Of a stretch of DNA of 64,000 nucleotides, positions 29,111 through 61,452 are shown piece after piece. The notes beneath the pieces are model-generated. The model saw only the letters and a program-made list of their open reading frames with translations. It was not told the DNA's origin and ran no database searches. Position numbers and translations under genes: made by a program. Position 1 is the first letter of the stretch, and every line of letters starts with the position of its first letter. This DNA comes from Candidatus Leucobacter sulfamidivorax (GTDB lineage: Bacteria; Actinomycetota; Actinomycetes; Actinomycetales; Microbacteriaceae), in the NCBI GenBank assembly GCA_016771945.1, contig QZLF01000004.1:124001-188000 (forward strand), written 5' to 3'.

Positions 29111-29126
29111 GATGCTCCTATATTTG

Positions 29127-30197
29127 TCAACTCACGATCTCACCGGTTCTCGGGTTGACTTTGACCAGGTGGTAAAGCTCGCGGATGACATAGCGTTTCA
29201 AGCATCGGATGATGTCTCGTTTGCTTTTCCCTTCGGCGGTTCTGCGGGCGACATAGTCGATCGTGGGTTGGTGGAATCGCATTCTCACGATCACGGTCCG
29301 GTAGATCGCGGCGTTGAGTTGCCGGTGCCCACCATGATTGATGCGGTGCTTCCCACTCGTTATTCCAGAGCCAGCGGGTATCGGGCTAATGCCAGCGAGT
29401 TTCGCGAACGCCGCCTCGGACTTGATGCGCTCGGGGTTGTCTCCTGCCACGATGAGGATTTCTGCGGCAGTGTCCACGCCAATGCCGAACTCGTCGAGCA
29501 GATGGGGCGCACGCTGGAGGACGAGTTCCTCGATCATGCTCGTAAGTTCCTTGCTCTCCTCGTCGAGCAGGAGCCAGCGCTTCGCAAGCGACCGCAAGGC
29601 ATGCCGGTTCGCGTCCTCTGGAGATTCGAGACCGCGCGGTCGGAATGCCGCACAGTAACGCGCGAGCGTACGCTGTGTCTTCCGGGCGGTCTCGATGCGG
29701 AGTTGTTCTGGTGCGTGCACGAGCATGGCTTTGAGTGTCACCATCGTCGCAGCTTTCTGCTTCACTGCGGTGTCATGGGCGACTTTCAGTTGCCGAATCA
29801 TCTCGACCGCACCATCCATCGTCTTCGGGGTTGCGGTCGCGAAGCCTGCAAGCACCGCTCTCGCGGCGTTCTCCGCGTCAAGGGTGTCTGACTTGCCGTT
29901 GAGTCGGCGCAGCCGCCTGTCAGGGCGCGAGACCTCGACGACCTTATGGCCTTGCCTTCGTAGGAACGAGGTGAGGCCTGCCCCGTAGGAGCCAGTCCCC
30001 TCAATCCCGAAGGAGATGACCTTCCCGAAGCTCTCAGCCCAGGCGAGGAGCTGCTTGAACCCGGCGGTATCGGTCGCGATCGTAAGTGTCGCGAGGATCC
30101 CTCCGATCGTGTCCATCACGGCAGCGACGTGGATATGTTTATGCGTATCGACGCCGATCACGACGTGCCCTGAACGGGAGGGTGTTTCTTGGGTCAT
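29127..30197 (-). CDS. IS110-family transposase (copy A)
   Basis: 356 residues. The N-terminal DEDD RuvC-like domain shows VIGVDTHKHIH (Asp), FGIEGTGSYG (Glu) and KSDTLDAENAAR (Asp). The C-terminal Tnp_20 domain has AGISPIPAGSGITSGKHRIN, holding the presumed catalytic Ser. Such recombinases work with a bridge RNA transcribed from the non-coding end (known for IS621). Intact reading frame. Confidence 0.96.
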   Translation of the reverse strand: MTQETPSRSGHVVIGVDTHKHIHVAAVMDTIGGILATLTIATDTAGFKQLLAWAESFGKVISFGIEGTGSYGAGLTSFLRRQGHKVVEVSRPDRRLRRLNGKSDTLDAENAARAVLAGFATATPKTMDGAVEMIRQLKVAHDTAVKQKAATMVTLKAMLVHAPEQLRIETARKTQRTLARYCAAFRPRGLESPEDANRHALRSLAKRWLLLDEESKELTSMIEELVLQRAPHLLDEFGIGVDTAAEILIVAGDNPERIKSEAAFAKLAGISPIPAGSGITSGKHRINHGGHRQLNAAIYRTVIVRMRFHQPTIDYVARRTAEGKSKRDIIRCLKRYVIRELYHLVKVNPRTGEIVS

Positions 30198-30251
30198 AGC
30201 GGTGCTCTCCTCTGCCGGTTATCGTGGGGTTCACGCTGTCACCGGCGAGGG

Positions 30252-30401
30252 GACAGGACTGTCACGGGGACGCTATCGAAAGTATGCTCCAGGCTCCTAT
30301 TAGGTCACGCCTCGTCCGGTGGCAGCGCTTCTATTGCGCTGCCCGGGCGGAGGGCCGACAGATCAACGCAAAGGCACCATGCGGGCCAATCAAAACACGA
30401 G
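30252..30401 (-). ncRNA. Candidate IS110 bridge RNA core, copy A
   Basis: Same sequence as in copy B (42355-42504): candidate target loop, 8-bp hairpin and candidate donor loop upstream of the transposase. See copy B for the reading. Confidence 0.5.
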
Positions 30402-30461
30402 CCAGACCACTCCGACCGGGACTCCCCAATCCTTGCGAGATCAGGTAGAAACAGACTGACA

Positions 30462-31978: not shown

Positions 31979-33046
31979 TCAGGCGATCGGGATGAGGTTG
32001 AAGATGAAGCCGATGAGGAAGATCGCGGCGAGCACGATCCCGGTGAAGAGCGCCAGCAGCGGCCACTTCATGACCCGGCGCAGCATGATGAGTGAGGGGA
32101 TGGAGAGCGCGACGAGGCTCATCATGAACGCCATCGTGGTACCGAGTGCGACACCCTTCGTGAAGAGCGCTGAGGCGAGCGGCACGACCGCTGCCGGGTT
32201 CGCATAGAGCGGGGCCCCGGCAAAGGTGGCGATGAGGAGCGAGAACGGGTTCTCGGGGCCCGCGACCTCGGCGAAAAACTCGTCGGGCACCCACCCGTGA
32301 ATCGCGGCACCGATGAGCACGCCGAGCACCAGGTAGGGGAGGATCTTTACGATTATCTGCCGGGTCTCCGCCCATGAAGCGTCCACCCTGTCACGCATGC
32401 TGGGCCTCTTCTGAGCGGTTGCGAGCTGCGTGGTGCGGCTGGTGAAGACGAAGGGCTCGATCCACTGGTCAAGTTTGAAACGCGACAGCACCAGTCCGAC
32501 CGTGATCGAGACGGTCGCACCGGCGAGGGCCCAGCCTGCGGCGATGTCCCACCCGAAGGTGCCGCCCATCAGGATGATGCCTGTCTCGCTAATGAGTGGG
32601 GAGGAGACGAGGAAGGCGAGGGTCACGGCGAGGGGAACGCCCGCGGCGACGAGGCCGATGAAGATCGGGATCGAACTGCACGAGCAGAACGGGGTGATTG
32701 CCCCGAGCGCCACCGCCAGCAGGATGCCCACGAAGAGCCCCTTGCCGGTGAGCACCCCGCGCACCCTCTCTGGTGAGATCTGCGTGTTCACGAGGCCCAC
32801 GAGGAACAGGAGCCCCACGAGCAGCAAGGTGATTTTGACGGTGTCGTAGAGAAAGAACTCGAGGGCCGCGCCGAGTGTGGATGCGAGATCTACCCGGAAG
32901 AGGTCGCCAAGCAGCCACGGCCACAGCACCTCGTTCACGGCAAACACCACGCCCCAAACTGCTGCCAGGCCCACAAGTAGTGCCCAAACCTTCAGGTCGT
33001 CTCGGGGTGACGCGGATCGCGTCGGGCGCGCACTGTCGACCGTCAT
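31979..33046 (-). CDS. ArsP-type permease (organoarsenical/metal efflux)
   Basis: 355 residues with about ten membrane segments. The motif TPFCSCSSIPIFIGL near residue 120 is the cysteine signature of the ArsP/DUF318 permease family, which exports trivalent organoarsenicals in characterised cases. ATG at 33046 was chosen because the longer frame runs through the operator. An ArsR-like operator at 33071-33092 suggests it belongs to the same regulon as the two ars loci. Confidence 0.88.
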   Translation of the reverse strand: MTVDSARPTRSASPRDDLKVWALLVGLAAVWGVVFAVNEVLWPWLLGDLFRVDLASTLGAALEFFLYDTVKITLLLVGLLFLVGLVNTQISPERVRGVLTGKGLFVGILLAVALGAITPFCSCSSIPIFIGLVAAGVPLAVTLAFLVSSPLISETGIILMGGTFGWDIAAGWALAGATVSITVGLVLSRFKLDQWIEPFVFTSRTTQLATAQKRPSMRDRVDASWAETRQIIVKILPYLVLGVLIGAAIHGWVPDEFFAEVAGPENPFSLLIATFAGAPLYANPAAVVPLASALFTKGVALGTTMAFMMSLVALSIPSLIMLRRVMKWPLLALFTGIVLAAIFLIGFIFNLIPIA

Positions 33047-33070
33047 GCGTGCCTCCCGGAGTTCGTGCTT

Positions 33071-33092
33071 GCATTGATAATATTCGATGTGA
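33071..33092 (-). promoter_or_regulatory. ArsR-like operator upstream of the permease
   Basis: GCATTGATAATATTCGATGT, ending GA, matches the arsR2 operator (27255-27276) at 17 of 22 positions, 25 bases before the permease start. Confidence 0.6.
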
Positions 33093-33193
33093 GTCGGGGC
33101 GTGTGGTGATTGAGTTCTCGTCGGGTGCTGCACGGGGCGCGGCAGTCTCACAGCGTACTGTTGAGTTACAGGCTGCGTGAGGGGTGGGAACTG

Positions 33194-41209: not shown

Positions 41210-41263
41210 TGAAGCGCTCTGGGTTTGTTGGAGGCTCCTGATCTTGGAAACGAGGATGGAGTT

Positions 41264-41608
41264 ATGCCGAAGGAACAGAGTGTGGGGAAGCCGACGACGC
41301 GTCGCTACTCGGTCGAGGAGAAGGCTGCCGCGGTGCGGATGGTGAGGACGCTGCGCGCCGAGCTCGGCGTCACGCAGGGGACCGTGCAGCGTGTCGCGAC
41401 GCAACTTGGTTATGGGGTCGAGTCCGTGCGGACGTGGGTGAAGCAGGCCGATTTCGACGATGGCGTCACCACCGGCGTGAGTACTGCCGAGGCGCAACGA
41501 GTGAAGGAGCTCGAGCAGGAGAACCGGGAGCTTCGCCGCGCCAACGAGGTGTTGAAGAGGGCGGCGTCTTTCTTCGGGGCGGAACTCGACCGCCACTACC
41601 GGAAGTAG
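41264..41608 (+). CDS. IS3-beta orfA
   Basis: 114 residues. It has an N-terminal helix-turn-helix (RRYSVEEKAAAVRMVRTLRA and YGVESVRTWVKQA) and a C-terminal coiled coil (VKELEQENRELRRANEVL). ATG at 41264. OrfB lies in the -1 frame, as expected for frameshift production of the full transposase. Confidence 0.92.
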   Translation: MPKEQSVGKPTTRRYSVEEKAAAVRMVRTLRAELGVTQGTVQRVATQLGYGVESVRTWVKQADFDDGVTTGVSTAEAQRVKELEQENRELRRANEVLKRAASFFGAELDRHYRK

Positions 41609-42294
41609 TCGCGTTCATCGACGCGAACAAGGACGACGTCGTGGACGGTCGCCGGCTCGGGGTCGAGTTCATCTGCAGACTGCTGCAGGTGGCTCCGAGC
41701 AGCTACTACGCCGTAAAGACGCGCGCACCCTCGGCGCGGACGCTGCGGGACGAGGAACTGATCCCGCAGCTCGTCGAGCTCTGGGAGGCCAACTACCGGG
41801 TCTACGGGATCCGCAAGCTCTGGAAAGCGGCCAGCCGGGCGGGGATCACGATCGGCCGTGATCAAACCGCGAGGCTAATGCGCGCCGCCGGGATCGAGGG
41901 AGCGAGGCGGTCGAAGCGAGTGAAGACCACCCGGCCGGATCCTTCGTCGGCGCGGCACCCGGATCTGGTGAAACGGGAGTTCACCGCGACCGCCCCGAAC
42001 CGGCTTTGGGTCACAGATCTGACGTTCGTGCCGACCTGGGCCGGGGTCGCGTACGTGTGCTTCATCGTCGACGAGTTCAGTCGGATGATCGTCGGGTGGA
42101 GGTGCGCGTCGCACATGCGTACCGAGATGGTCCTCGACGCAATCGAGATGGCCCGCTGGTCGCGTGGCGCCCACCACGAGGATTTGCGGTGTCACAGCGA
42201 TGCCGGGTCTCAATTCACGTCGATTCGCTACGGCGAACGCCTCGCGGAGATCGGCGCGTCCCCGTCGATCGGGACCGTCGGGGACAGCTATGAC
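41593..42294 (+). pseudogene. IS3-beta transposase orfB, 5' part
   Basis: The integrase core runs from VAFIDANKDDVVDGRRLG through the DDE segment LWVTDLTFVPTWAGVAYV and HSDAGSQFTS to SPSIGTVGDSYD. It ends at Asp because IS110-B begins at 42295; the frame then reads CQSVST and stops. The rest is at 43646-43879. Confidence 0.92.
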
Positions 42295-42354
42295 TGTCAG
42301 TCTGTTTCTACCTGATCTCGCAAGGATTGGGGAGTCCCGGTCGGAGTGGTCTGG

Positions 42355-42504
42355 CTCGTGTTTTGATTGGCCCGCATGGTGCCTTTGCGTTGATCTGTCG
42401 GCCCTCCGCCCGGGCAGCGCAATAGAAGCGCTGCCACCGGACGAGGCGTGACCTAATAGGAGCCTGGAGCATACTTTCGATAGCGTCCCCGTGACAGTCC
42501 TGTC
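42355..42504 (+). ncRNA. Candidate IS110 bridge RNA core, copy B
   Basis: Four short motifs lie in the order expected of a bridge RNA. TTTTGATT (42361-42368) resembles the left target flank. GCGTT (42387-42391) is the complement of the right flank AACGC. GGAGCAT (42466-42472) is identical to the element's right end. TGACAGT (42492-42498) is the complement of the left junction ACTGTCA. An 8-bp hairpin GGCAGCGC/GCGCTGCC (42413-42435) separates the two pairs. Position 5' of the transposase matches IS621-type IS110 elements. The ends of the transcript are not determined. Confidence 0.55.
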
Positions 42505-42558
42505 CCCTCGCCGGTGACAGCGTGAACCCCACGATAACCGGCAGAGGAGAGCACCGCT

Positions 42559-43629
42559 ATGACCCAAGAAACACCCTCCCGTTCAGGGCACGTCGTGATC
42601 GGCGTCGATACGCATAAACATATCCACGTCGCTGCCGTGATGGACACGATCGGAGGGATCCTCGCGACACTTACGATCGCGACCGATACCGCCGGGTTCA
42701 AGCAGCTCCTCGCCTGGGCTGAGAGCTTCGGGAAGGTCATCTCCTTCGGGATTGAGGGGACTGGCTCCTACGGGGCAGGCCTCACCTCGTTCCTACGAAG
42801 GCAAGGCCATAAGGTCGTCGAGGTCTCGCGCCCTGACAGGCGGCTGCGCCGACTCAACGGCAAGTCAGACACCCTTGACGCGGAGAACGCCGCGAGAGCG
42901 GTGCTTGCAGGCTTCGCGACCGCAACCCCGAAGACGATGGATGGTGCGGTCGAGATGATTCGGCAACTGAAAGTCGCCCATGACACCGCAGTGAAGCAGA
43001 AAGCTGCGACGATGGTGACACTCAAAGCCATGCTCGTGCACGCACCAGAACAACTCCGCATCGAGACCGCCCGGAAGACACAGCGTACGCTCGCGCGTTA
43101 CTGTGCGGCATTCCGACCGCGCGGTCTCGAATCTCCAGAGGACGCGAACCGGCATGCCTTGCGGTCGCTTGCGAAGCGCTGGCTACGGCTCGACGAGGAG
43201 AGCAAGGAACTTACGAGCATGATCGAGGAACTCGTCCTCCAGCGTGCGCCCCATCTGCTCGACGAGTTCGGCATTGGCGTGGACACTGCCGCAGAAATCC
43301 TCATCGTGGCAGGAGACAACCCCGAGCGCATCAAGTCCGAGGCGGCGTTCGCGAAACTCGCTGGCATTAGCCCGATACCCGCTGGCTCTGGAATAACGAG
43401 TGGGAAGCACCGCATCAATCATGGTGGGCACCGGCAACTCAACGCCGCGATCTACCGGACCGTGATCGTGAGAATGCGATTCCACCAACCCACGATCGAC
43501 TATGTCGCCCGCAGAACCGCCGAAGGGAAAAGCAAACGAGACATCATCCGATGCTTGAAACGCTATGTCATCCGCGAGCTTTACCACCTGGTCAAAGTCA
43601 ACCCGAGAACCGGTGAGATCGTGAGTTGA
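42559..43629 (+). CDS. IS110-family transposase (copy B)
   Basis: 356 residues, intact, with the same DEDD and Tnp_20 motifs as copy A. It differs in one visible residue (RWLRLDEES for RWLLLDEES). GAGGAGAG lies upstream of the ATG. Confidence 0.96.
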   Translation: MTQETPSRSGHVVIGVDTHKHIHVAAVMDTIGGILATLTIATDTAGFKQLLAWAESFGKVISFGIEGTGSYGAGLTSFLRRQGHKVVEVSRPDRRLRRLNGKSDTLDAENAARAVLAGFATATPKTMDGAVEMIRQLKVAHDTAVKQKAATMVTLKAMLVHAPEQLRIETARKTQRTLARYCAAFRPRGLESPEDANRHALRSLAKRWLRLDEESKELTSMIEELVLQRAPHLLDEFGIGVDTAAEILIVAGDNPERIKSEAAFAKLAGISPIPAGSGITSGKHRINHGGHRQLNAAIYRTVIVRMRFHQPTIDYVARRTAEGKSKRDIIRCLKRYVIRELYHLVKVNPRTGEIVS

Positions 43630-43645
43630 CAAATATAGGAGCATC

Positions 43646-43879
43646 AACGCCCTGGCAGAGACGGTGAACGGGTACTACAAGGGCGAACTTGTTCGCGGGC
43701 CGGCCCGGTCAGGGCCATGGAAGACGGTCGAGGATCTCGAGCTCGCGACGCTCGGATGGGTGCACTGGCACAACACTCAGCGCCTCCACGGCTACCTCGG
43801 CGATATCCCACCCGCGGAGTTCGAGCAGACGTTCTATGCTGGCCAAACTGACCGCGAACAGTTGGTCGGAATCAAATAG
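43646..43879 (+). pseudogene. IS3-beta transposase orfB, 3' part
   Basis: Starts with NALAETVNGYYKGELVRGPA and continues WVHWHNTQRLHGYLGDIPPA to DREQLVGIK. It is the final quarter of the integrase domain, separated from its 5' part by IS110-B. Confidence 0.92.
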
Positions 43880-43910
43880 CGCGAGTCTCCATCAAACCCA
43901 GAGCGCTTCA

Positions 43911-46519: not shown

Positions 46520-48898
46520 ATGTCAATATTCCTGTACCGTTTGGGGCGCTTCTCCTACCGGCGCCCGTGGGTGTTTCTGATCACCTGGTTCCTCATTCTC
46601 GGGAGCGTCATCACGTTGGCGATCACGGGCGGGGTGAAGATCAGTTCTGCGATCACGATCGATGGGACAGAGAGTCAAGCCGTCATCGAAGAGCTTCGTT
46701 CTGAGTTTCCTGACACCGCTGGCGGGCAGGGCACGATCGTGTTCACGAGCCCGTCTGGTGAGCGAGTCGACGAGGGGGCGAGCGCAGAAGCGATCCGCTC
46801 GTCACTCACGGCCATCTCGGCCAACGAGTTCGTGGTGGAGCGCAGCACAGAGAATCTCGCAGCAGTCATGCCGAAACCTGAGGACGCCACCGGTCCGATA
46901 GCGCCTGGTGATGCGCCACAACCACCCGAGCAGATGCAAGGTCATGCCGGGCAACAGGTCTCCCCAGCTGAGCAAGAAATGATGATGCAGCAGGCTCTCC
47001 GGCAGCAGGGAATGCTCGCCCCCGGTGTGCTCATCTCTGACGACGGAACTGTGGCGCTCATGCAGATCCAGTTCTCTCTGCAAGTCGAAGACCTTCCTGC
47101 AGGTGTGATCGACGACGTGGTCACTACTGCGACACAACACGCCGAAGAAGTCGGAATCATGGCTCTGCCGACCGAGTCTCTGAAACCTCACGAACCTCCT
47201 CTGGGCGGGCATGAAGCGTTGGGGTTGTTGGTGGCAGGTCTTGTGCTCTTCCTCACCCTGGGTTCACTCCGGGCTGCAGGCCTGCCACTTGTTACCGGGG
47301 TGCTCGGTGTCGCGGTCGGTCTGGGTGGCGCATTCGCCCTGTCGAACACCGTTGAACTCACCAGTGCGACACCGGTGCTTGCGCTCATGATCGGGCTCGC
47401 CGTCGGCCTCGACTACGCCCTCTTCATCGTCAACCGGCAACGGCACCTCATTCTCCGCGAAGGGCTTTCTGCAGCGGAGGCAGCCGGTCGAGCATTAGGG
47501 ACCGCTGGTAGTGCGGTAGCTTTCGCAGGTCTCATCGTGGTCATCGCTCTCGGCGGGTTGACGCTGATCGGGATATCTTTTCTCACCACCATGGCACTCG
47601 TGGCTGCGGCAACTGTGCTTCTGGCGGTACTCATCGCGCTCACCCTGCTCCCGTCCCTGTTGGGAATCGTCGGTGAACGAATTCTCAGCCCGCGGGCACG
47701 GCAGAGACAGCAGCAGCGCAGTTACGTACAACGTCACGGTTTCGCCCACACATTCGCCTCCGGCGTGGTGAAGGGGCGGTGGGCCGTCATCATCGGCGTT
47801 GTCGCACTCCTGGGGGTCGCCGCCATCCCTATGACTCAGATGTCTCTCGGCATGCCCAATGGATCCACCGCAAATCTCGATACGACCGAGCGGCAGGCAT
47901 CCGACGCCGTCACCCGGGGTTTCGGTGAGGGCTACAACGCACCGCTCATCACCGTCATTCATGCACCAGACGGAGAACACTTCGACGCCACCGAACTCCC
48001 TGCCATTGCCGAATCACTCGAACGCGGTGAGTCTGTCGAGACAGTTAGGCCCATGGGGCTTTCTCCCGACGACACGCTCGCACTCTTCACCGTCATCCCT
48101 ACTGAAGGAGCCGATGCTGAGTCAACAACCACGCTCGTGCACACGTTGCGCGCAGATTCCGGTGATCTCACCGGAATCGCCGGAACAACCATTGGTGTCA
48201 CAGGTCTCACTGCGATCAATCTCGATATTTCCGAGAAACTCGCGAGCGTGCTCCCGCTCTACATCACCATCATCGTCATCCTCTCGTTGCTGGTGCTGCT
48301 CGTGGTCTTCCGTTCGATCCTGATCCCGATTAAAGCAACCGTGGGGTTCTTGCTGACCATTGGCGCGACGTTCGGGATCATGACCGCGATCTTCCAGTGG
48401 GGATGGCTGAAAGACCTCGTCGGCATCGACACGGCTGGCCCGATCCTCAGTTTCCTTCCCATCATGGTCACTGGCATCTTGTATGGCCTTGCAATGGACT
48501 ACGAGATGTTCCTTGTCAGTTCTATGCGTGAAGCCCACGTGCACGGGCACCAGGGAGCCCAAGCCGTCATCCGCGGGTTCGAACAGTCCAGTCGTGTCGT
48601 GGTTGCTGCCGCCGCGATTATGGTCTCAGTGTTTGCCGGGTTCATCTTCAGCGAAGACAGCATGGTGAAACAATTTGGGTTAGCGCTGGCTGTCGGAATA
48701 TTGATTGATGCGTTCTTGATCCGCATGACACTCGTCCCAGCCCTCATGGCAACACTTGGACGCGCAGCATGGTGGACACCGAAATGGCTCGACAAGATCC
48801 TCCCGAACCTGGATATCGAAGGTGACCGCCTCACGGACTACCTTCGCACACAGCGAGGTCTCACCCGAACGCACAGGGCCGAACAATCAAATGGATAA
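46520..48898 (+). CDS. MMPL-family transporter (RND superfamily)
   Basis: 792 residues with about 12 membrane helices in two halves. Each half has a large extracytoplasmic loop (about 38-225 and 470-590). The family motif GLAVGLDYALFIVNRQRHL and its second-half counterpart GILYGLAMDYEMFLVSSMRE carry the proton-relay Asp-Tyr pairs. The first loop has a Gln-rich stretch (about 145-165). It probably exports a lipid or drug under TetR control. Confidence 0.93.
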   Translation: MSIFLYRLGRFSYRRPWVFLITWFLILGSVITLAITGGVKISSAITIDGTESQAVIEELRSEFPDTAGGQGTIVFTSPSGERVDEGASAEAIRSSLTAISANEFVVERSTENLAAVMPKPEDATGPIAPGDAPQPPEQMQGHAGQQVSPAEQEMMMQQALRQQGMLAPGVLISDDGTVALMQIQFSLQVEDLPAGVIDDVVTTATQHAEEVGIMALPTESLKPHEPPLGGHEALGLLVAGLVLFLTLGSLRAAGLPLVTGVLGVAVGLGGAFALSNTVELTSATPVLALMIGLAVGLDYALFIVNRQRHLILREGLSAAEAAGRALGTAGSAVAFAGLIVVIALGGLTLIGISFLTTMALVAAATVLLAVLIALTLLPSLLGIVGERILSPRARQRQQQRSYVQRHGFAHTFASGVVKGRWAVIIGVVALLGVAAIPMTQMSLGMPNGSTANLDTTERQASDAVTRGFGEGYNAPLITVIHAPDGEHFDATELPAIAESLERGESVETVRPMGLSPDDTLALFTVIPTEGADAESTTTLVHTLRADSGDLTGIAGTTIGVTGLTAINLDISEKLASVLPLYITIIVILSLLVLLVVFRSILIPIKATVGFLLTIGATFGIMTAIFQWGWLKDLVGIDTAGPILSFLPIMVTGILYGLAMDYEMFLVSSMREAHVHGHQGAQAVIRGFEQSSRVVVAAAAIMVSVFAGFIFSEDSMVKQFGLALAVGILIDAFLIRMTLVPALMATLGRAAWWTPKWLDKILPNLDIEGDRLTDYLRTQRGLTRTHRAEQSNG

Positions 48899-49025: not shown

Positions 49026-49856
49026 TCACCGATAATTGCCAGGACCCAGACCATGCATGAAGCGATTGAGCCGATCGCTTTCGACTACGTGAAGTTCATC
49101 ATTGTCCGTGCTGGCAGTGCGCTGTTGTTTAGTGAGTATCGATTCATCCATGGCCGCACTTCCGTCAACAATCATGCCGTCGGCCGGCACGCTGCCGCCC
49201 GGGCGCACGATCACGAGATCATCAACGCGCAACTCCGCCGGGCTCACCGTGACGGCCGTTTCACCCTCGACCCGCTCGGCTTCGTCGGGCAAAAGCGCAG
49301 CGAGGGAGTCGAGCGCAGAAGTGGTCTGGGCGAGCGAACGCATCTCGATCCAGTGCCCGAGCAGCATAATGACCACCAGCAGCGCGAGTTCCCACCAGAA
49401 TTCGAGCTCGTGATGCAACAGCCCGAGTGGTGCGCCCCACGATGCGAGGAAGGCCACGGTGATGCCCAGGGCGATCAGCAGCATCATGCCCGGTTTGCGG
49501 GCCTTGATTTCGCTCACCGTGCCCGTCAAGAATGGGGAGCCGCCCCAGACATACATCACGGTGCCGATAACAGGTGCGATCCAGGTGGCCCAGCCTGGTA
49601 CTGAATGGCCGAGGATCATGGCAAACATTGGCGAGAACGCGACGACTGGCACCGCGAGCACGAGATTCACCCAGAACAGGCGCCGAAACTGTGCCACATG
49701 ATCGCCGTGGCCGCCGTGACCGCAGTGGCCCATATGGCCAGCGTGACCACCGTGATCCTCGTGCCCAGTGCGCTCGTGGTGCTCGTGGTGCTCGTGGTGC
49801 TCGTGGCCACTGTGAGGCCCGTGGTCGTGCCCGTGGCCCGAGTGTGGCTTCGTCAT
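49026..49856 (-). pseudogene. CopB-like copper ATPase, truncated
   Basis: Starts with a His-rich metal-binding region (MTKPHSGHGHDHG, then HHEHHEHHE). It continues through the first membrane helices (GTVMYVWGGSPFLTG) to the actuator, VPADGMIVDGSAAMDES, and then runs into unrelated sequence. The phosphorylation and ATP-binding domains are missing, so it cannot pump. The full frame extends to 50000, but the ATG at 49856 is the natural start. Confidence 0.88.
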
Positions 49857-49859
49857 ACT

Positions 49860-50106
49860 CAAGGCGCTCCCGCTCGCGGTCACCCACTCAGGTGATTCTG
49901 ATTCGACGGGTGCGCTCTGTGGCAACATCCTTGGTGCGCTGCATGGAGAAGAATCGTTGCCGCCGCAGCTGGTGTTTGAGGTTGAAGGTCGGGGCACCAT
50001 CCTCGAACTTACAGATGACTTTGTCTACGAGTTCACTCGCGGGCATGAACTGCAGGGCGAATACGGCCTGTACACACGCTGGACCACACGGTATCCCGGT
50101 TGGTGA
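49860..50106 (+). pseudogene. ADP-ribosylglycohydrolase C-terminal remnant
   Basis: The plus strand encodes HSGDSDSTGALCGNILGALH, then EVEGRGTILELTDDFVYEF, ending YPGW and a stop. The SGDSDSTG motif is the metal-binding signature of ADP-ribosylglycohydrolases. The N-terminal two-thirds are absent and there is no start codon. Its 5' break coincides with the CopB-like gene start. Confidence 0.75.
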
Positions 50107-52767: not shown

Positions 52768-54192
52768 TTAAGCTGCTTCGATGACGGGCACGTTGCCGAC
52801 CCGTGATACCCAGGCGGCGTAGCTGCCGTCGAGTTCTGCGATGTCGTACCCGGCGCGGCGCAGCGCGCTCGCGGCAACACTGTTGCGCACCCCGCTCTGG
52901 CAGTACGTCACGATCGTGCCGGCGCCGGGTGCGGGCAGCTGATCCAGGTGCCACATCACGCGGCCCCCAGAGAGCTGTACCGCGCCGGGCAGGTGGCCGT
53001 CAGCGTACTCGGTCTTGTTACGCACGTCGAGGAGCATCACACGGTCGAAACCATCGAGCTGTTCTGGCTGAACCAGTTTCGGGGTGACGAGATCGAGGCC
53101 CTCGAGTGTCGTGATGAACCCGTGTGTGGTGTCGATACCGACACGCACCAGGTGATCACGGAACTCCTCTGCATGCTCGCGTGATTCCGCGAGGAGCACC
53201 AGCGGGCGCTGCTCGAGGTCGGGATCTACGACCCACGCGCCGTAGCTTGCGGCCTTCTCTACGCCCGGAATGTTCAGCGATCGATCTACGGTTCCCTCGT
53301 GCACCAGCTGGTTGTTTCGGGTGTCAACGAAGATGACCCGGTCATCGGTGAGCGCCTGCGTGAGGTCTGCGGTGGTGTACTCGACAAGTTCTTGCACGTC
53401 ACCAATGACGGCGGGGCCGATCTTGTTCTGCAGCTTCATGCGCGCGAAGTAGGCGTGTGCGTCGGGCTGCCCATTGAGGAGCTCGTCGACGAAGCCCTGC
53501 TCGTCGTTGTTCTTCAGGTATTTGCCCCACCACGAGAAGTTCCGCTCGTAGCCGACCGTGGTCACAGCGATTGCGCCAAGCGCCTTGCCGCACGCTGAAC
53601 CCGATCCGTGTGCGGGAAGAACCTGCACGTAGTCGGGGAGGGTGAGGAAACGGTCGCGCAGACTCGCGAAGAGATCTTTCGCGCCCTTGAACCGGGTATC
53701 AACAAAGCCGGCTGCTTCGTCGAGGAGGTCAGGGCGGCCGAGGTCGCCGACGAATACGAAGTCACCGGTGAGCATGAAGCCTGGCTCGGGTGACTGTGCG
53801 CCGTCGGTAATGAGGAACGACATGTGCTCGGGCGTGTGGCCGGGGGTGTGCACCGCCTCGATCGTGATGTTGCCGAGGGTGATCTGGTGGCCGTGCTTCA
53901 TGCGCACGGCGCTATCGAACGCGGCGGAGTAGGTCCAGTCGGGGCCGCCCTCGTCCGACACGTACATTTGCGCGCCGGTGTGTGCGGCGAGCTCGCGGGT
54001 GCCTGACAGGTAATCGGCGTGGATGTGAGTTTCGGTGACGGCGACGATCTTCATGCCATTTTTTGCGGCGAGATCGAGGTAGACGTCGAGGTCGCGGCGG
54101 GGGTCGACGACGATGGCCTCGCCCTTCGCCTGGCAACCGATGAAGTAGCTCGCCTGTGCGAGGTCTTCGTCGTAGATGCGCTCAAGCAGCAT
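52768..54192 (-). CDS. MBL-fold persulfide dioxygenase-like protein fused to rhodanese domains
   Basis: 474 residues. The N-terminal metallo-beta-lactamase domain has THIHADYLSG (metal ligands), HTPGHTPEHMSFLI and GDFVFVGDLGRPDL, as in ETHE1-like persulfide dioxygenases. It is followed by a degenerate rhodanese (about 255-345) and an active one with VTYCQSGVRNSVAA near residue 440. It oxidises glutathione- or mycothiol-type persulfides to sulfite and transfers sulfur. Central enzyme of the operon. Confidence 0.92.
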   Translation of the reverse strand: MLLERIYDEDLAQASYFIGCQAKGEAIVVDPRRDLDVYLDLAAKNGMKIVAVTETHIHADYLSGTRELAAHTGAQMYVSDEGGPDWTYSAAFDSAVRMKHGHQITLGNITIEAVHTPGHTPEHMSFLITDGAQSPEPGFMLTGDFVFVGDLGRPDLLDEAAGFVDTRFKGAKDLFASLRDRFLTLPDYVQVLPAHGSGSACGKALGAIAVTTVGYERNFSWWGKYLKNNDEQGFVDELLNGQPDAHAYFARMKLQNKIGPAVIGDVQELVEYTTADLTQALTDDRVIFVDTRNNQLVHEGTVDRSLNIPGVEKAASYGAWVVDPDLEQRPLVLLAESREHAEEFRDHLVRVGIDTTHGFITTLEGLDLVTPKLVQPEQLDGFDRVMLLDVRNKTEYADGHLPGAVQLSGGRVMWHLDQLPAPGAGTIVTYCQSGVRNSVAASALRRAGYDIAELDGSYAAWVSRVGNVPVIEAA

Positions 54193-55978: not shown

Positions 55979-55994
55979 GATGCTCCTATATTTG

Positions 55995-57065
55995 TCAACT
56001 CACGATCTCACCGGTTCTCGGGTTGACTTTGACCAGGTGGTAAAGCTCGCGGATGACATAGCGTTTCAAGCATCGGATGATGTCTCGTTTGCTTTTCCCT
56101 TCGGCGGTTCTGCGGGCGACATAGTCGATCGTGGGTTGGTGGAATCGCATTCTCACGATCACGGTCCGGTAGATCGCGGCGTTGAGTTGCCGGTGCCCAC
56201 CATGATTGATGCGGTGCTTCCCACTCGTTATTCCAGAGCCAGCGGGTATCGGGCTAATGCCAGCGAGTTTCGCGAACGCCGCCTCGGACTTGATGCGCTC
56301 GGGGTTGTCTCCTGCCACGATGAGGATTTCTGCGGCAGTGTCCACGCCAATGCCGAACTCGTCGAGCAGATGGGGCGCACGCTGGAGGACGAGTTCCTCG
56401 ATCATGCTCGTAAGTTCCTTGCTCTCCTCGTCGAGCAGGAGCCAGCGCTTCGCAAGCGACCGCAAGGCATGCCGGTTCGCGTCCTCTGGAGATTCGAGAC
56501 CGCGCGGTCGGAATGCCGCACAGTAACGCGCGAGCGTACGCTGTGTCTTCCGGGCGGTCTCGATGCGGAGTTGTTCTGGTGCGTGCACGAGCATGGCTTT
56601 GAGTGTCACCATCGTCGCAGCTTTCTGCTTCACTGCGGTGTCATGGGCGACTTTCAGTTGCCGAATCATCTCGACCGCACCATCCATCGTCTTCGGGGTT
56701 GCGGTCGCGAAGCCTGCAAGCACCGCTCTCGCGGCGTTCTCCGCGTCAAGGGTGTCTGACTTGCCGTTGAGTCGGCGCAGCCGCCTGTCAGGGCGCGAGA
56801 CCTCGACGCCCTTATGGCCTTGCCTTCGTAGGAAAGAGGTGAGGCCTGCCCCGTAGGAGCCAGTCCCCTCAATCCCGAAGGAGATGACCTTCCCGAAGCT
56901 CTCAGCCCAGGCGAGGAGCTGCTTGAACCCGGCGGTATCGGTCGCGATCGTAAGTGTCGCGAGGATCCCTCCGATCGTGTCCATCACGGCAGCGACGTGG
57001 ATATGTTTATGCGTATCGACGCCGATCACGACGTGCCCTGAACGGGAGGGTGTTTCTTGGGTCAT
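55995..57065 (-). CDS. IS110-family transposase (copy C)
   Basis: 356 residues, intact. One visible difference from copy A (HKGVEVSR for HKVVEVSR). Its natural left end is now 4 kb away, so the element cannot move as one unit. Confidence 0.95.
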   Translation of the reverse strand: MTQETPSRSGHVVIGVDTHKHIHVAAVMDTIGGILATLTIATDTAGFKQLLAWAESFGKVISFGIEGTGSYGAGLTSFLRRQGHKGVEVSRPDRRLRRLNGKSDTLDAENAARAVLAGFATATPKTMDGAVEMIRQLKVAHDTAVKQKAATMVTLKAMLVHAPEQLRIETARKTQRTLARYCAAFRPRGLESPEDANRHALRSLAKRWLLLDEESKELTSMIEELVLQRAPHLLDEFGIGVDTAAEILIVAGDNPERIKSEAAFAKLAGISPIPAGSGITSGKHRINHGGHRQLNAAIYRTVIVRMRFHQPTIDYVARRTAEGKSKRDIIRCLKRYVIRELYHLVKVNPRTGEIVS

Positions 57066-57119
57066 AGCGGTGCTCTCCTCTGCCGGTTATCGTGGGGTTC
57101 ACGCTGTCACCGGCGAGGG

Positions 57120-57269
57120 GACAGGACTGTCACGGGGACGCTATCGAAAGTATGCTCCAGGCTCCTATTAGGTCACGCCTCGTCCGGTGGCAGCGCTTCT
57201 ATTGCGCTGCCCGGGCGGAGGGCCGACAGATCAACGCAAAGGCACCATGCGGGCCAATCAAAACACGAG
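57120..57269 (-). ncRNA. Candidate IS110 bridge RNA core, copy C
   Basis: Same candidate loops as copy B. Here the leftmost 60 bp, which may include the promoter, has been replaced by the end of IS3-beta. Confidence 0.4.
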
Positions 57270-57322
57270 CCATGAAGCGCTCTGGGTTTGATGGAGACTC
57301 GCGCTATTTGATTCCGACCAAG

Positions 57323-58732
57323 GCCGCGTCCCTTTGAGTGGTGGAAATTCGCGTCACCAGGGCAAGGGTCAGTAGCAGTAGTTTAGGCCGCGTTCAGCTC
57401 GGCGAGCATCACCTCCCCAGGCTGTTGGGGGAGGAGTTTCATGGAGTGCTCACTGAAGTAGCGCCGCTCGGCTGCTTCCCACTCGTCGTGCTGCTCGATC
57501 AGCACATGCCCGGTCAGGCGCAGGAGCGCGTCGGGGTTCGGAAACGTGCCGACGACATTCGTGCGCCGCTTGATCTCTTTGTTGAGGCGTTCGAGCGGGT
57601 TCGTCGACCAGATCTGCTGCCAATGCTGGGGCGGGAACTCCGTGAACGCGAGGAGATCATCCCTGGCCTCGTCGAGCATCACGGCGACCGCGGGATGGGA
57701 CTTCTCAAGCAGCGTGACGACCTCGTCGAACTGGGCGTGCACGAGTTCCCTCTTTCCTCGAGGCACGAAGATCGTGCGGATGATCGCCGCGACCATGGGG
57801 CCGGCGACTTTCGGCACCCGGGCGAGCACGTTGCGCATGAAATGCACCCGGCACCTCTGCCAGGCGGCCCCTTGGAACGCGACACGGATCGCGCGGATGA
57901 GGCCGGTATGGGCGTCGCTGATCACGAGCTGCACCCCGGACAGGCCACGGCTTTTGAGATCGCGGAAGAACTCGGTCCAGAATGACTCGGATTCCGTGTC
58001 ACCGACCTGGAAGCCCAGCACCTGCCGTCGGCCGTCTGCTGCGACGCCGATCGCGACCACGACCGCCTGGGAGACGATGCGCTTGCCGACGCGGGCTTTG
58101 CAATAGGTTGCGTCGACGAACACGTACGGGTAGCTCGTGTCTGAGAGAGCTCGGTGTTGGAACTCGGTGATGTCCTCATCAAGATCGGCGCAGATGCGCG
58201 ATACCTCGGACTTCGAGATCCCAGTATCGGCGCCGAGCGCTTTCACGAGGTCGTCGACTTTCCTCGTGGAGACCCCGTGCACGTACGCTTCCATAACCAC
58301 CGCGAACAGGGCCTGGTCAACTCTGCGACGCCGTTCGAGGAGTGAAGGGAAGAACGATCCTTGGCGGAGTTTCGGGATGCGCAGATCGAGATCGCCGGCA
58401 GTCGTGGTGAGCGTGCGGGCGCGGCTGCCGTTACGTTGTGTCGTCCGTTCTGCGGACCGTTGGTACGGGGCGGCGCCGATCACGGCTGTAGCTTCGGCAT
58501 CAATGAGTTCCTGGAACGCGCGCTGTGTTAACGCGCGGATACGGTCGGTGGTGTCGGTGAGTTCGAGTTCCTTCAAGAGCTCGATCAAGGCAGACTGGGT
58601 CAGAGCCATCGTGCGATGTGTCCTTCCGTTGAGATCAGTAGAGAGTTCTCACTGACCATCGCACGATGGCTCGCTCGTCGCTCAGGACGACACACGAGCT
58701 TCAGGAATTACACCACCCACCGGGACGCGGCC
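57323..58732 (-). mobile_element. IS256-family element, 1410 bp
   Basis: Terminal repeats GGCCGCGTCCC at 57323 and GGGACGCGGCC ending at 58732. An 8-bp target duplication CCGACCAA lies at 57315-57322 and 58733-58740, the typical IS256 length. It is inserted near the end of IS3-beta orfB. Confidence 0.95.
57383..58609 (-). CDS. IS256-family transposase
   Basis: 408 residues, intact. The DDE residues lie in VFVDATYCKARVG, LVISDAHTGL and NPLERLNKEIKRRTNVVGTF. It has the conserved Mutator-type C/H motif WQRCRVHFMRN. Length is normal for the family. Confidence 0.96.
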   Translation of the reverse strand: MALTQSALIELLKELELTDTTDRIRALTQRAFQELIDAEATAVIGAAPYQRSAERTTQRNGSRARTLTTTAGDLDLRIPKLRQGSFFPSLLERRRRVDQALFAVVMEAYVHGVSTRKVDDLVKALGADTGISKSEVSRICADLDEDITEFQHRALSDTSYPYVFVDATYCKARVGKRIVSQAVVVAIGVAADGRRQVLGFQVGDTESESFWTEFFRDLKSRGLSGVQLVISDAHTGLIRAIRVAFQGAAWQRCRVHFMRNVLARVPKVAGPMVAAIIRTIFVPRGKRELVHAQFDEVVTLLEKSHPAVAVMLDEARDDLLAFTEFPPQHWQQIWSTNPLERLNKEIKRRTNVVGTFPNPDALLRLTGHVLIEQHDEWEAAERRYFSEHSMKLLPQQPGEVMLAELNAA

Positions 58733-58956
58733 CCGACCAACTGTTCGCGGTCAGTTTGGCCAGCATAGAACGTCTGCTCGAACTCCGCGGGTGGGATATC
58801 GCCGAGGTAGCCGTGGAGGCGCTGAGTGTTGTGCCAGTGCACCCATCCGAGCGTCGCGAGCTCGAGATCCTCGACCGTCTTCCATGGCCCTGACCGGGCC
58901 GGCCCGCGAACAAGTTCGCCCTTGTAGTACCCGTTCACCGTCTCTGCCAGGGCGTT
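58733..58956 (-). pseudogene. IS3-beta copy D orfB, 3' part
   Basis: NALAETVNGYYKGELVRGPA onward, up to DREQLVG, where IS256 enters. The last codons (IK and stop) are at 57304-57322 on the other side of IS256. Confidence 0.9.
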
Positions 58957-58972
58957 GATGCTCCTATATTTG

Positions 58973-60043
58973 TCAACTCACGATCTCACCGGTTCTCGGG
59001 TTGACTTTGACCAGGTGGTAAAGCTCGCGGATGACATAGCGTTTCAAGCATCGGATGATGTCTCGTTTGCTTTTCCCTTCGGCGGTTCTGCGGGCGACAT
59101 AGTCGATCGTGGGTTGGTGGAATCGCATTCTCACGATCACGGTCCGGTAGATCGCGGCGTTGAGTGGCCGGTGGCCGCCATGATGGATGCGGTGCTTTGC
59201 ACTCGTGATGCCAGATCCAGCGGGTGTCGGGCTAATGCCAGCGAGTTTCGCGAACGCCGCCTCGGACTTGATGCGCTCGGGGTTGTCTCCTGCCACGATG
59301 AGGATTTCTGCGGCAGTGTCCACGCCAATGCCGAACTCGTCGAGCAGATGGGGCGCACGCTGGAGGACGAGTTCCTCGATCATGCTCGTAAGTTCCTTGC
59401 TCTCCTCGTCGAGCAGGAGCCATCGCTTCGCAAGCGACCGCAAGGCATGCCGGTTCGCGTCCTCTGGAGATTCGAGACCGCGCGGTCGGAATGCCGCACA
59501 GTAACGCGCGAGCGTACGCTGTGTCTTCCGGGCGGTCTCGATGCGGAGTTGTTCTGGTGCGTGCACGAGCATGGCTTTGAGTGTCACCATCGTCGCAGCT
59601 TTCTGCTTCACTGCGGTGTCATGGGCGACTTTCAGTTGCCGAATCATCTCGACCGCACCATCCATCGTCTTCGGGGTTGCGGTCGCGAAGCCTGCAAGCA
59701 CCGCTCTCGCGGCGTTCTCCGCGTCAAGGGTGTCTGACTTGCCGTTGAGTCGGCGCAGCCGCCTGTCAGGGCGCGAGACCTCGACGACCTTATGGCCTTG
59801 CCTTCGTAGGAACGAGGTGAGGCCTGCCCCGTAGGAGCCAGTCCCCTCAATCCCGAAGGAGATGACCTTCCCGAAGCTCTCAGCCCAGGCGAGGAGCTGC
59901 TTGAACCCGGCGGTATCGGTCGCGATCGTAAGTGTCGCGAGGATCCCTCCGATCGTGTCCATCACGGCAGCGACGTGGATATGTTTATGCGTATCGACGC
60001 CGATCACGACGTGCCCTGAACGGGAGGGTGTTTCTTGGGTCAT
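58973..60043 (-). CDS. IS110-family transposase (copy D, variant catalytic patch)
   Basis: 356 residues, intact. Around the Tnp_20 catalytic region it reads SPTPAGSGITSAKHRIHHGG and GHRPLN, where the other copies read SPIPAGSGITSGKHRINHGG and GHRQLN. The changes are confined to about 65 bp, suggesting gene conversion from another IS110. Confidence 0.95.
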   Translation of the reverse strand: MTQETPSRSGHVVIGVDTHKHIHVAAVMDTIGGILATLTIATDTAGFKQLLAWAESFGKVISFGIEGTGSYGAGLTSFLRRQGHKVVEVSRPDRRLRRLNGKSDTLDAENAARAVLAGFATATPKTMDGAVEMIRQLKVAHDTAVKQKAATMVTLKAMLVHAPEQLRIETARKTQRTLARYCAAFRPRGLESPEDANRHALRSLAKRWLLLDEESKELTSMIEELVLQRAPHLLDEFGIGVDTAAEILIVAGDNPERIKSEAAFAKLAGISPTPAGSGITSAKHRIHHGGHRPLNAAIYRTVIVRMRFHQPTIDYVARRTAEGKSKRDIIRCLKRYVIRELYHLVKVNPRTGEIVS

Positions 60044-60097
60044 AGCGGTGCTCTCCTCTGCCGGTTATCGTGGGGTTCACGCTGTCACCGGCGAGGG

Positions 60098-60247
60098 GAC
60101 AGGACTGTCACGGGGACGCTATCGAAAGTATGCTCCAGGCTCCTATTAGGTCACGCCTCGTCCGGTGGCAGCGCTTCTATTGCGCTGCCCGGGCGGAGGG
60201 CCGACAGATCAACGCAAAGGCACCATGCGGGCCAATCAAAACACGAG
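60098..60247 (-). ncRNA. Candidate IS110 bridge RNA core, copy D
   Basis: Same candidate loops as copy B; GCGTTGATC at 60207-60215 and TGACAGT at 60104-60110 (minus strand). Confidence 0.5.
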
Positions 60248-60307
60248 CCAGACCACTCCGACCGGGACTCCCCAATCCTTGCGAGATCAGGTAGAAACAG
60301 ACTGACA

Positions 60308-61009
60308 GTCATAGCTGTCCCCGACGGTCCCGATCGACGGGGACGCGCCGATCTCCGCGAGGCGTTCGCCGTAGCGAATCGACGTGAATTGAGACCCGGC
60401 ATCGCTGTGACACCGCAAATCCTCGTGGTGGGCGCCACGCGACCAGCGGGCCATCTCGATTGCGTCGAGGACCATCTCGGTACGCATGTGCGACGCGCAC
60501 CTCCACCCGACGATCATCCGACTGAACGCGTCGACGATGAAGCACACGTACGCGACCCCGGCCCAGGTCGGCACGAACGTCAGATCTGTGACCCAAAGCC
60601 GGTTCGGGGCGGTCGCGGTGAACTCCCGTTTCACCAGATCCGGGTGCCGCGCCGACGAAGGATCCGGCCGGGTGGTCTTCACTCGCTTCGACCGCCTCGC
60701 TCCCTCGATCCCGGCGGCGCGCATTAGCCTCGCGGTTTGATCACGGCCGATCGTGATCCCCGCCCGGCTGGCCGCTTTCCAGAGCTTGCGGATCCCGTAG
60801 ACCCGGTAGTTGGCCTCCCAGAGCTCGACGAGCTGCGGGATCAGTTCCTCGTCCCGCAGCGTCCGCGCCGAGGGTGCGCGCGTCTTTACGGCGTAGTAGC
60901 TGCTCGGAGCCACCTGCAGCAGTCTGCAGATGAACTCGACCCCGAGCCGGCGACCGTCCACGACGTCGTCCTTGTTCGCGTCGATGAACGCGACTACTTC
61001 CGGTAGTGG
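60308..61009 (-). pseudogene. IS3-beta copy D orfB, 5' part
   Basis: Integrase core identical to copy B except CFIVDAFSRMIVG for CFIVDEFSRMIVG, ending at GDSYD where IS110-D begins. Confidence 0.92.
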
Positions 61010-61338
61010 CGGTCGAGTTCCGCCCCGAAGAAAGACGCCGCCCTCTTCAACCCCTCGTTGGCGCGGCGAAGCTCCCGGTTCTCCTGCTCGAGCTCCTTCA
61101 CTCGTTGCGCCTCGGCAGTACTCACGCCGGTGGTGACGCCATCGTCGAAATCGGCCTGCTTCACCCACGTCCGCACGGACTCGACCCCATAACCAAGTTG
61201 CGTCGCGACACGCTGCACGGTCCCCTGCGTGACGCCGAGCTCGGCGCGCAGCGTCCTCACCATCCGCACCGCGGCAGCCTTCTCCTCGACCGAGTAGCGA
61301 CGCGTCGTCGGCTTCCCCACACTCTGTTCCTTCGGCAT
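60994..61338 (-). CDS. IS3-beta copy D orfA
   Basis: 114 residues, same as the orfA at 41264-41608 except RANEGLKRAAS for RANEVLKRAAS. Intact helix-turn-helix and coiled coil. Confidence 0.92.
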   Translation of the reverse strand: MPKEQSVGKPTTRRYSVEEKAAAVRMVRTLRAELGVTQGTVQRVATQLGYGVESVRTWVKQADFDDGVTTGVSTAEAQRVKELEQENRELRRANEGLKRAASFFGAELDRHYRK

Positions 61339-61452
61339 AACTCCATCCTCGTTTCCAAGATCAGGAGCCTCCAACAAACCCAGAGCGCTTCACCAGACCA
61401 CTCCGACCGGGACTCCCCAATCCTTGCGAGATCAGGTAGAAACAGACTGACA

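What the first reader, a model, noticed from the sequence alone, without database searches (positions are those of the whole stretch)
42295..43645. IS110 element that always targets the same codons of IS3 transposase genes
All four 1351-bp IS110 copies (29111-30461, 42295-43645, 55979-61452, 58957-60307) are inserted at one place: between the Asp and Asn codons of Gly-Asp-x-x-Asp-Asn-Ala in orfB. The hosts are three different IS3 elements, whose flanks are GGGGACTCGTATGAC, GGGGACAGCTATGAC and GGTGACGCGCTTGAT on the left and AACGCC or AACGCA on the right. This is one of the most conserved stretches of IS3 transposases. It therefore gives the IS110 a spread-out, harmless landing site and kills a competing transposon. 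A mobile element specialised on other mobile elements is unusual.
Basis: seen in the sequence. Interest (0 to 1): 0.85.

Follow-up and report, generated by a model that had tools for sequence, protein, structure and literature searches.

The report
Jumping gene homing on rival transposons
This bacterial jumping gene carries a guide RNA that matches the stretch of DNA encoding the active site of a different kind of jumping gene (IS3), so it lands there and breaks its rival; elements that aim at IS3 were already known, but this exact aiming point and its persistence across distant bacteria were not found in the papers searched.

Summary
Four copies of one 1351-bp IS110 element lie in the window (one split by a nested IS3), a fifth elsewhere in the genome. 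All five sit between the Asp and Asn codons of D|NAxxE in IS3 orfB, four codons before the catalytic Glu. An HMM of uninterrupted IS3 orfBs puts the junction exactly at its Asp|Asn columns in 73 of 100 related loci; Pfam supports 5 more. By recombinase identity that is 50 of 51 (>=70%), 22 of 27 (53-70%) and 6 of 22 (<53%).

The likely cause is a bridge RNA encoded in the 5' noncoding end. Its left guide resembles TAYGAY, its right guide matches AAYGC. Guides and targets co-vary (0 of 5000 shuffles as good), also in relatives aimed elsewhere. Donor guides co-vary too.

IS110/IS1111 elements that target mobile elements are known, and ISEc21 is published as targeting IS3 at the second catalytic Asp (confirmed here). 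The window clade aims at another codon pair of that active site, across Actinomycetota and Pseudomonadota: a new variant of a known kind. 'Safe harbour' and 'kills a rival' are plausible inferences. Guide pairing alone does not explain IS3-only occupancy: nine equally well paired non-IS3 sites in this genome are empty.

The parts
42295..43645 (+). IS110 copy 2 (reference copy), 1351 bp, ends TGTCAGTCTG...TATAGGAGCATC, in IS3 orfB at Asp|Asn
42559..43629 (+). IS110 recombinase gene, 356 aa (DEDD_Tnp_IS110 and Transposase_20 domains)
42295..42558 (+). 5' noncoding end that encodes the inferred bridge RNA
   Evidence: folding no better than shuffles, no Rfam match
42348..42403 (+). inferred target-binding loop: outer stem GGUC(u)GGC/GUCGGCC, inner hairpin GGC/GCC
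   Evidence: inner hairpin GGC/GCC in 30 and GAC/GTC in 21 of 57 entries; coordinates checked
42360..42367 (+). left target guide GUUUUGAU, pairs with the bottom strand at the x-Asp codons
42386..42392 (+). right target guide UGCGUUG, pairs with C|AAYGC (Asn-Ala codons)
42456..42463 (+). left donor guide AUAGGAGC, same letters as the element's right end
42492..42497 (+). right donor guide UGACAG, reverse complement of C|TGTCA at the element's left end
   Evidence: 59 of 64 loci match 6 of 6
41210..43910 (+). IS3 element hosting copy 2 (inverted repeats TGAAGCGCTCTGGGTTTG), orfB broken 4 codons before the catalytic Glu
29111..30461 (-). IS110 copy 1, in a different IS3 (GGGGACTCGTATGAC|AACGCC)
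55979..57272 (-). IS110 copy 3, right piece (element positions 58-1351), in a third IS3 (GGTGACGCGCTTGAT|AACGCA)
61393..61452 (-). IS110 copy 3, left piece (element positions 1-60)
58957..60307 (-). IS110 copy 4, inside the IS3 that interrupts copy 3
57273..61392 (-). IS3 with copy 4 inside, itself inserted in IS110 copy 3 with a 3-bp duplication (CCA on the + strand)
57383..58609 (-). Mutator-family transposase gene lying in the right part of that IS3

Best explanation
An autonomous IS110 element whose noncoding 5' end encodes a bridge RNA. The target loop of that RNA is written to codons of the IS3 transposase active site: left guide = Tyr/Phe/Trp-Asp codons, right guide = Asn-Ala codons, 4 codons before the Glu of D-35-E. 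The donor loop pairs with the element's own joined ends. The recombinase, guided by this RNA, inserts the circular element between the Asp and Asn codons in one orientation. G.U pairs at third-codon positions let one guide accept some synonymous codons of different IS3 elements. Shown from sequence: the site, the guides, guide-target and guide-donor covariation, and at least some independent insertions. Inferred: expression of the RNA, the circular form, the recombination itself, and that selection (abundant, dispensable, re-seeding landing sites) keeps the guide aimed at IS3.
For: Both IS110 domains. Junction exactly at IS3 Asp|Asn columns in 73 of 100 loci, plus rve domains beside a D|N junction in L050, L055, L100, L132 and L142. 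Left guide-target pairs 256 of 288 (48 loci), shuffles mean 232 and max 245; right 207 of 215 (43 loci), shuffles mean 197 and max 206; 0 of 5000 shuffles reach either. Right donor guide perfect in 59 of 64, co-changing with the element end (TGTCAG/UGACAG, TGTGAG/UCACAG, TGCGAG/UCGCAG, ACTCA/UGAGUG), 0 of 5000 shuffles; the right-end 7-mer recurs in the 5' region in 52 of 58. Relatives aimed elsewhere have matching guides: L084, L109, L136; L104 by eye. G.U use: 7 of 10 AAT targets face a guide G, 15 of 35 GAC targets a guide U. Tree: 56-row clade (SH-aLRT 99) with 53 rows at this site. Independent hits: IS110 in L003 differs by 1 nt from that in L002 (another IS3) but by 12 from that in L004 (same IS3).
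Against: No RNA or activity data. Folding of the whole 264-nt region is no better than shuffles (z -0.34), no Rfam hit. Pairing is imperfect: the window's left guide (UUUUGAU) fits Phe-Asp better than its Tyr-Asp hosts; 5 of 7 Phe-Asp hosts and 1 of 4 Trp-Asp hosts (L055) carry a Tyr-Asp guide. Nine non-IS3 sites of this genome pair as well as or better than the occupied ones (8 of 9 have 6/6 + 5/5, occupied sites 1 of 5), yet all nine are empty, so pairing alone does not explain the IS3-only pattern. Two intact IS3 copies here with a weaker site (AGD|NAAME) are unoccupied, and a relative that holds a related element (G008) has 2 intact sites. The HMM panel was picked by this very motif. Shuffles ignore relatedness; the 100 loci hold close relatives and at least one place seen twice (L010/L074). 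Donor guides do not fit in L087, L088, L091, L102.
Confidence: 0.88

Rival explanations
1. Hitch-hiking: IS110 entered an IS3 rarely, and the repeated location reflects IS3 elements copying themselves with IS110 inside.
For: Copies 2, 4 and L003 sit in the same IS3 at three different places, and the IS3 with copy 4 shows a 3-bp duplication inside another IS110, so IS3::IS110 units may move.
Against: Different IS3 hosts in one genome and different IS3 types across genomes share the junction. IS110 in L003 is nearer to the one in L002 (other IS3) than to the one in L004 (same IS3). Guides co-vary with targets.
Confidence: 0.07
2. Chance guide: the RNA matches a common coding motif, insertions fall anywhere it matches, and IS3 is seen only because insertions into host genes are purged.
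For: Nine equally well paired non-IS3 sites exist in this genome, five of them in open frames of 295-568 codons. A relative (L136) does sit in a gene with an FAD-binding domain, with perfectly matching guides.
Against: The same active-site codons are used by 53 of 56 rows of a clade, and Trp-Asp guides occur in three of four Trp-Asp hosts (L132, L142, L143; not L055) and in no Tyr-Asp or Phe-Asp host. Purging could still be what makes IS3 a favoured target, so this is partly compatible with the best explanation.
Confidence: 0.25
3. Shared defence: IS110 is kept because it silences IS3 for the host.
For: Insertion truncates OrfB before the catalytic Glu. The Tyr-Asp-Asn-Ala site pattern has 0 intact matches in this genome, against 68 matches in 29 of the other 119 genomes searched.
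Against: No benefit to the host was tested. Two IS3 copies with another form of the site are intact here. IS110 is itself mobile, and saturation of few sites may only mean recent activity.
Confidence: 0.1

Closest known systems
ISEc21 (IS110 family; Siddiquee et al. 2024, PMC11187229, passages and section 13 read)
   Same: IS110 with an upstream RNA-coding region, inserted in the catalytic codons of IS3-family transposases; natural re-aiming of a relative (ISMch6) is also reported there; guides of the same plan can be read in L147 (by eye)
   Different: Targets the second Asp (HSD|QGSQY), not D|NAxxE; recombinase 43.7% identical to the window's; lies in another clade
IS621 bridge RNA system (Durrant et al. 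2024, PMC11208160, passages read)
   Same: RNA with target-binding and donor-binding loops that pair with both strands of target and donor
   Different: IS621 targets REP sequences; core CT, whereas here only C is common to both junctions
IS4321/IS5075 (Tn21 inverted repeats) and IS1383 (IS1384 inverted repeats); only reference titles seen
   Same: IS110/IS1111 elements that use other mobile elements as targets
   Different: They target terminal inverted repeats, not protein-coding catalytic codons

Membership tests
IS110 family | DEDD (RuvC-like) N-terminal domain plus Transposase_20 C-terminal domain | tested here: met
   PF01548 E=1.5e-21 and PF02371 E=1.7e-15
IS110 family | long noncoding end upstream of the recombinase gene (IS110 group, not IS1111) | tested here: met
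   264 nt upstream, 16 nt between stop codon and right end
IS110 family | bridge RNA whose loops match target and donor | tested here: met
   covariation of guides with target and donor; the RNA itself was not seen
IS110 family | circular intermediate, no target duplication | tested here: inconclusive
   HMM columns 251|252 meet at the junction without duplication; circle not testable
ISEc21-type (IS3 second-Asp target) | insertion at HSD|xGSQY codons of IS3 | tested here: not met
   window copies lie at D|NAxxE, 31 residues further on in copy 2's host

The most novel reading that the evidence does not exclude
A whole branch of IS110 elements is a guide-RNA hyperparasite of DDE transposons. 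Its guides are written to codons of the IS3 catalytic site, a stretch IS3 can hardly change without losing activity (inferred), with G.U pairs covering part of the synonymous codons. The aim has been kept across Actinomycetota and Pseudomonadota and placed along the same active site more than once (second Asp in ISEc21 relatives, the catalytic Glu of an IS481-like gene in L145, by eye). It may leave scars: two IS3 copies in this genome lack exactly the Asn codon at the landing point.
Probability: 0.4. Interest if true: 0.8.

Novelty: new variant of a known kind. Interest (0 to 1): 0.6.

Why it matters
It shows an RNA-guided mobile element keeping its guide on highly constrained codons of a rival transposon across distant bacteria, a natural test case for how bridge-RNA targets evolve. 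It also gives a ready set of naturally matched and naturally re-aimed recombinase, guide and target combinations for work on bridge recombinases, and a concrete case in which one transposon may limit another.

Tried and rejected
Thermodynamic folding of the whole 264-nt region and Rfam gave nothing; the loops came from comparing relatives. A first reading of the left guide as CAUGGUG was wrong: that stretch lies in the inner hairpin, and the guide lies just 5' of it. Automatic guide extraction first picked the wrong hairpin and was corrected; 22 loci with a left junction still gave no guide and are not in the covariation counts. In one search the pick for L052, and probably L061, still looks wrong; both were kept in the counts. 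The right-end pattern over 396 genomes of the phylum matched in 2, the window's own genome and one other. Of 119 loci carried into the junction table, one search left out L003, L004, L008 and L115 as repeats, L024 (flank too short) and 14 with no readable junction (L014, L018, L023, L027, L029, L034, L096-L098, L107, L110, L111, L139, L144). A relaxed Asn-deletion pattern in 36 genomes (35 behind fetched loci, plus G135 again) gave 4 hits, none IS3-like by eye. No paper describing this exact site was seen in searches of the open PMC library; figures (for example ISAar29 in PMC11208160) and supplements could not be seen, so an earlier description is possible. One further paper (PMC2516522) was looked at in passages only and does not bear on this site.

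Full report
What is there. The 1351-bp element is present four times in the window (29111-30461 -, 42295-43645 +, 58957-60307 -, and 55979-57272 with 61393-61452 -, one copy split by an insertion) and once more in the genome (L003). It codes for a 356-aa recombinase with both IS110 domains, preceded by 264 nt of noncoding DNA. A contig of the 'same genus' genome G019 has the length of a Leucobacter luti contig, so the host is probably Leucobacter or close to it (inference).

The site. In all five copies the left flank ends in ...Gly-Asp-x-x-Asp and the right flank begins Asn-Ala of an IS3 orfB. On the host of copy 2, 35 residues lie between the Asp of HSD and the Glu of NALAE, so this is the Glu of the D-D-35-E triad (the triad itself is recalled knowledge of the IS3 family). 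Insertion leaves OrfB without the Glu, and its frame meets a stop codon six codons into the element.

How general. One scan of genome contigs gave 79 related loci. The genome search found matches in 27 of 199 genomes, many of them short or distant, and 18 plasmid records of 1394 with a match were fetched. I built an HMM from 22 uninterrupted IS3 orfB frames of at least 200 codons, out of 30 found at unoccupied sites of relatives; these were picked by the motif itself. Of 100 loci with at least one readable junction, 73 have it exactly at model columns 251|252, allowing 249-251 on the left: 48 of 51 at >=70% recombinase identity, 20 of 27 at 53-70%, 5 of 22 below 53%. Several hosts are frameshifted or cut further out (for example L039, L045, L068, L134). 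Pfam finds rve domains next to a D|N junction in five of the rest (L050, L055, L100, L132, L142), giving 78 of 100 (50 of 51, 22 of 27, 6 of 22); the right flank of L132 is not IS3. L089 is weak (rve_3 E=0.017) and L108 has only the motif. L059 is unresolved. The others lie elsewhere or cannot be assigned: L136 (FAD_binding_2), L084, L104, L109, L113, L101, L137, L141, L102, L017, L019, L020, L145 and six Modestobacter-group loci. Hosts of this site include Microbacteriaceae, Micrococcaceae, Brevibacterium, Streptomyces, Nocardia, Acidimicrobiia, Halomonas, Sphingomonas, Methylobacterium and Rahnella.

How it works. Comparing the 5' ends shows a target-binding loop: an outer stem, a left strand with the left guide, an inner hairpin (GGC/GCC in 30 and GAC/GTC in 21 of 57 entries), and a right strand with the right guide. 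Most loci with a readable guide carry UUACGAU or close variants on the left (Tyr-Asp codons) and GGCGUUG or UGCGUUG on the right (reverse complement of C plus the Asn-Ala codons). Three of four elements in Trp-Asp hosts have UGGGAU (L132, L142, L143); the fourth, L055, has a Tyr-Asp guide, as have 5 of 7 in Phe-Asp hosts. The window's own left guide fits Phe-Asp better than its Tyr-Asp hosts. Elements at other sequences have guides for those: L084 UCCCUGAA / TCCCTGAC|ATAGGG with CCCUGUG; L109 GUGACAAC / GTGACAAC|; L136 CGUUCGAU / CGTTCGAT|AATGCA with UGCAUUG. L104 shows the same by eye on the left. Over 48 loci, 256 of 288 left pairs form, against a shuffle mean of 232 and maximum of 245. Over 43 loci, 207 of 215 right pairs form, against mean 197 and maximum 206. 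None of 5000 shuffles reaches either (shuffles ignore relatedness). The right donor guide equals the reverse complement of C plus the first five bases of the element in 59 of 64 loci and changes with it; L142 misses one base, L087, L088, L091 and L102 do not fit. A 7-mer of the right end recurs in the 5' region in 52 of 58.

Codon tolerance. Opposite the third base of the Asn codon the right guide has G in 37 of 40 AAY targets (30 AAC, 7 AAT); the 3 with A all face AAT. At the last base of the Asp codon, of 35 GAC targets 15 face a guide U, 15 a C and 5 an A. The guide therefore tolerates synonymous change in part, not universally. Durrant et al. also invoke an rG:dT pair for frequently used sites (PMC11208160, passage read).

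Independent insertions and nesting. IS110 in L003 differs by 1 of 1351 bases from that in L002, which sits in another IS3, but by 12 from that in L004, which sits in the same IS3. Hitch-hiking is therefore not likely to be the sole cause. The IS3 carrying copy 4, which also holds a Mutator-family transposase gene, is inserted in IS110 copy 3 with a 3-bp duplication.

What pairing does not explain. The genome holds nine intact matches to TWYGAYAAYGC, none IS3-like by eye. Eight pair perfectly with the 6+5 core of the window guides; of the five occupied IS3 sites one does and four have one mismatch. All nine are empty. Purging of insertions in genes, or arrival of the element together with its IS3 hosts (four of five copies lie in one 32-kb stretch), would explain this; longer recognition is not visible in the pairing totals. 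Of the IS3-type genes in the rve census (27 hits), five are occupied, two have the site AGD|NAAME intact, and two lack the Asn codon.

Against the known. ISEc21 is published as targeting the codons around the second Asp of IS3 transposases (PMC11187229, passages read). I read its locus (L147) and confirm HSD|QGSQY. Two plasmid elements (L139, L144) read by eye as the same site and group with it (SH-aLRT 99). L145 reads by eye as TNGKA|ERFHRT, the catalytic Glu of an IS481-like gene (no family test run). The window element lies in a 56-row clade (SH-aLRT 99) with 53 rows at D|NA; L140, L142 and L143 (Halomonas, Escherichia albertii, Rahnella) at the same site form a separate group (quick tree of 78 rows, long branches warned of). 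So the principle is known, while this aiming point and its wide retention were not seen in the ten searches listed under Tried and rejected.

Noticed in passing
own genome C1:378511-378536 (L156/L177) and C1:556303-556328 (L154/L178): Two different IS3 orfBs lack exactly the Asn codon at the IS110 landing point (GDSYD-ALAE, GDSYD-AMAE). L156 is 99.6% identical (1054 of 1058) to the host of copy 1 up to the junction. In 119 related genomes the one other hit of the deletion pattern is not in IS3, against 68 matches of the intact pattern in 29 genomes. Scar of IS110 loss, or slippage between AC repeats.
   Followed up: partly
L131, around locus position 932: Left junction lacks the Asp codon (VADSY| instead of VADSYD|), a 3-base loss on the other side of the site.
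   Followed up: no
L047, L048, L060 (Streptomyces), upstream of the recombinase gene: Recombinase and right end of this clade, but a left end like that of a distant Arthrobacter element (L097): possibly hybrid elements with exchanged guides (by eye).
   Followed up: no
L056 and L059, right junction: The right end is followed by TGTC, the first bases of the element's own left end, as if from a tandem copy or circle junction.
   Followed up: no
L145 (Mycolicibacterium chubuense plasmid), L139, L144: Related IS110 elements seem to lie in other catalytic codons of rve-type transposases: catalytic Glu of an IS481-like gene, and the second Asp of IS3 (by eye).
   Followed up: partly
window 31982-33151, 46520-48895, 49029-50000, 52771-54192: The IS-rich region also codes for an ArsP-type permease, an MMPL protein, part of a P-type ATPase and a metallo-beta-lactamase-fold/rhodanese protein, suggesting a mobile island.
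   Followed up: no
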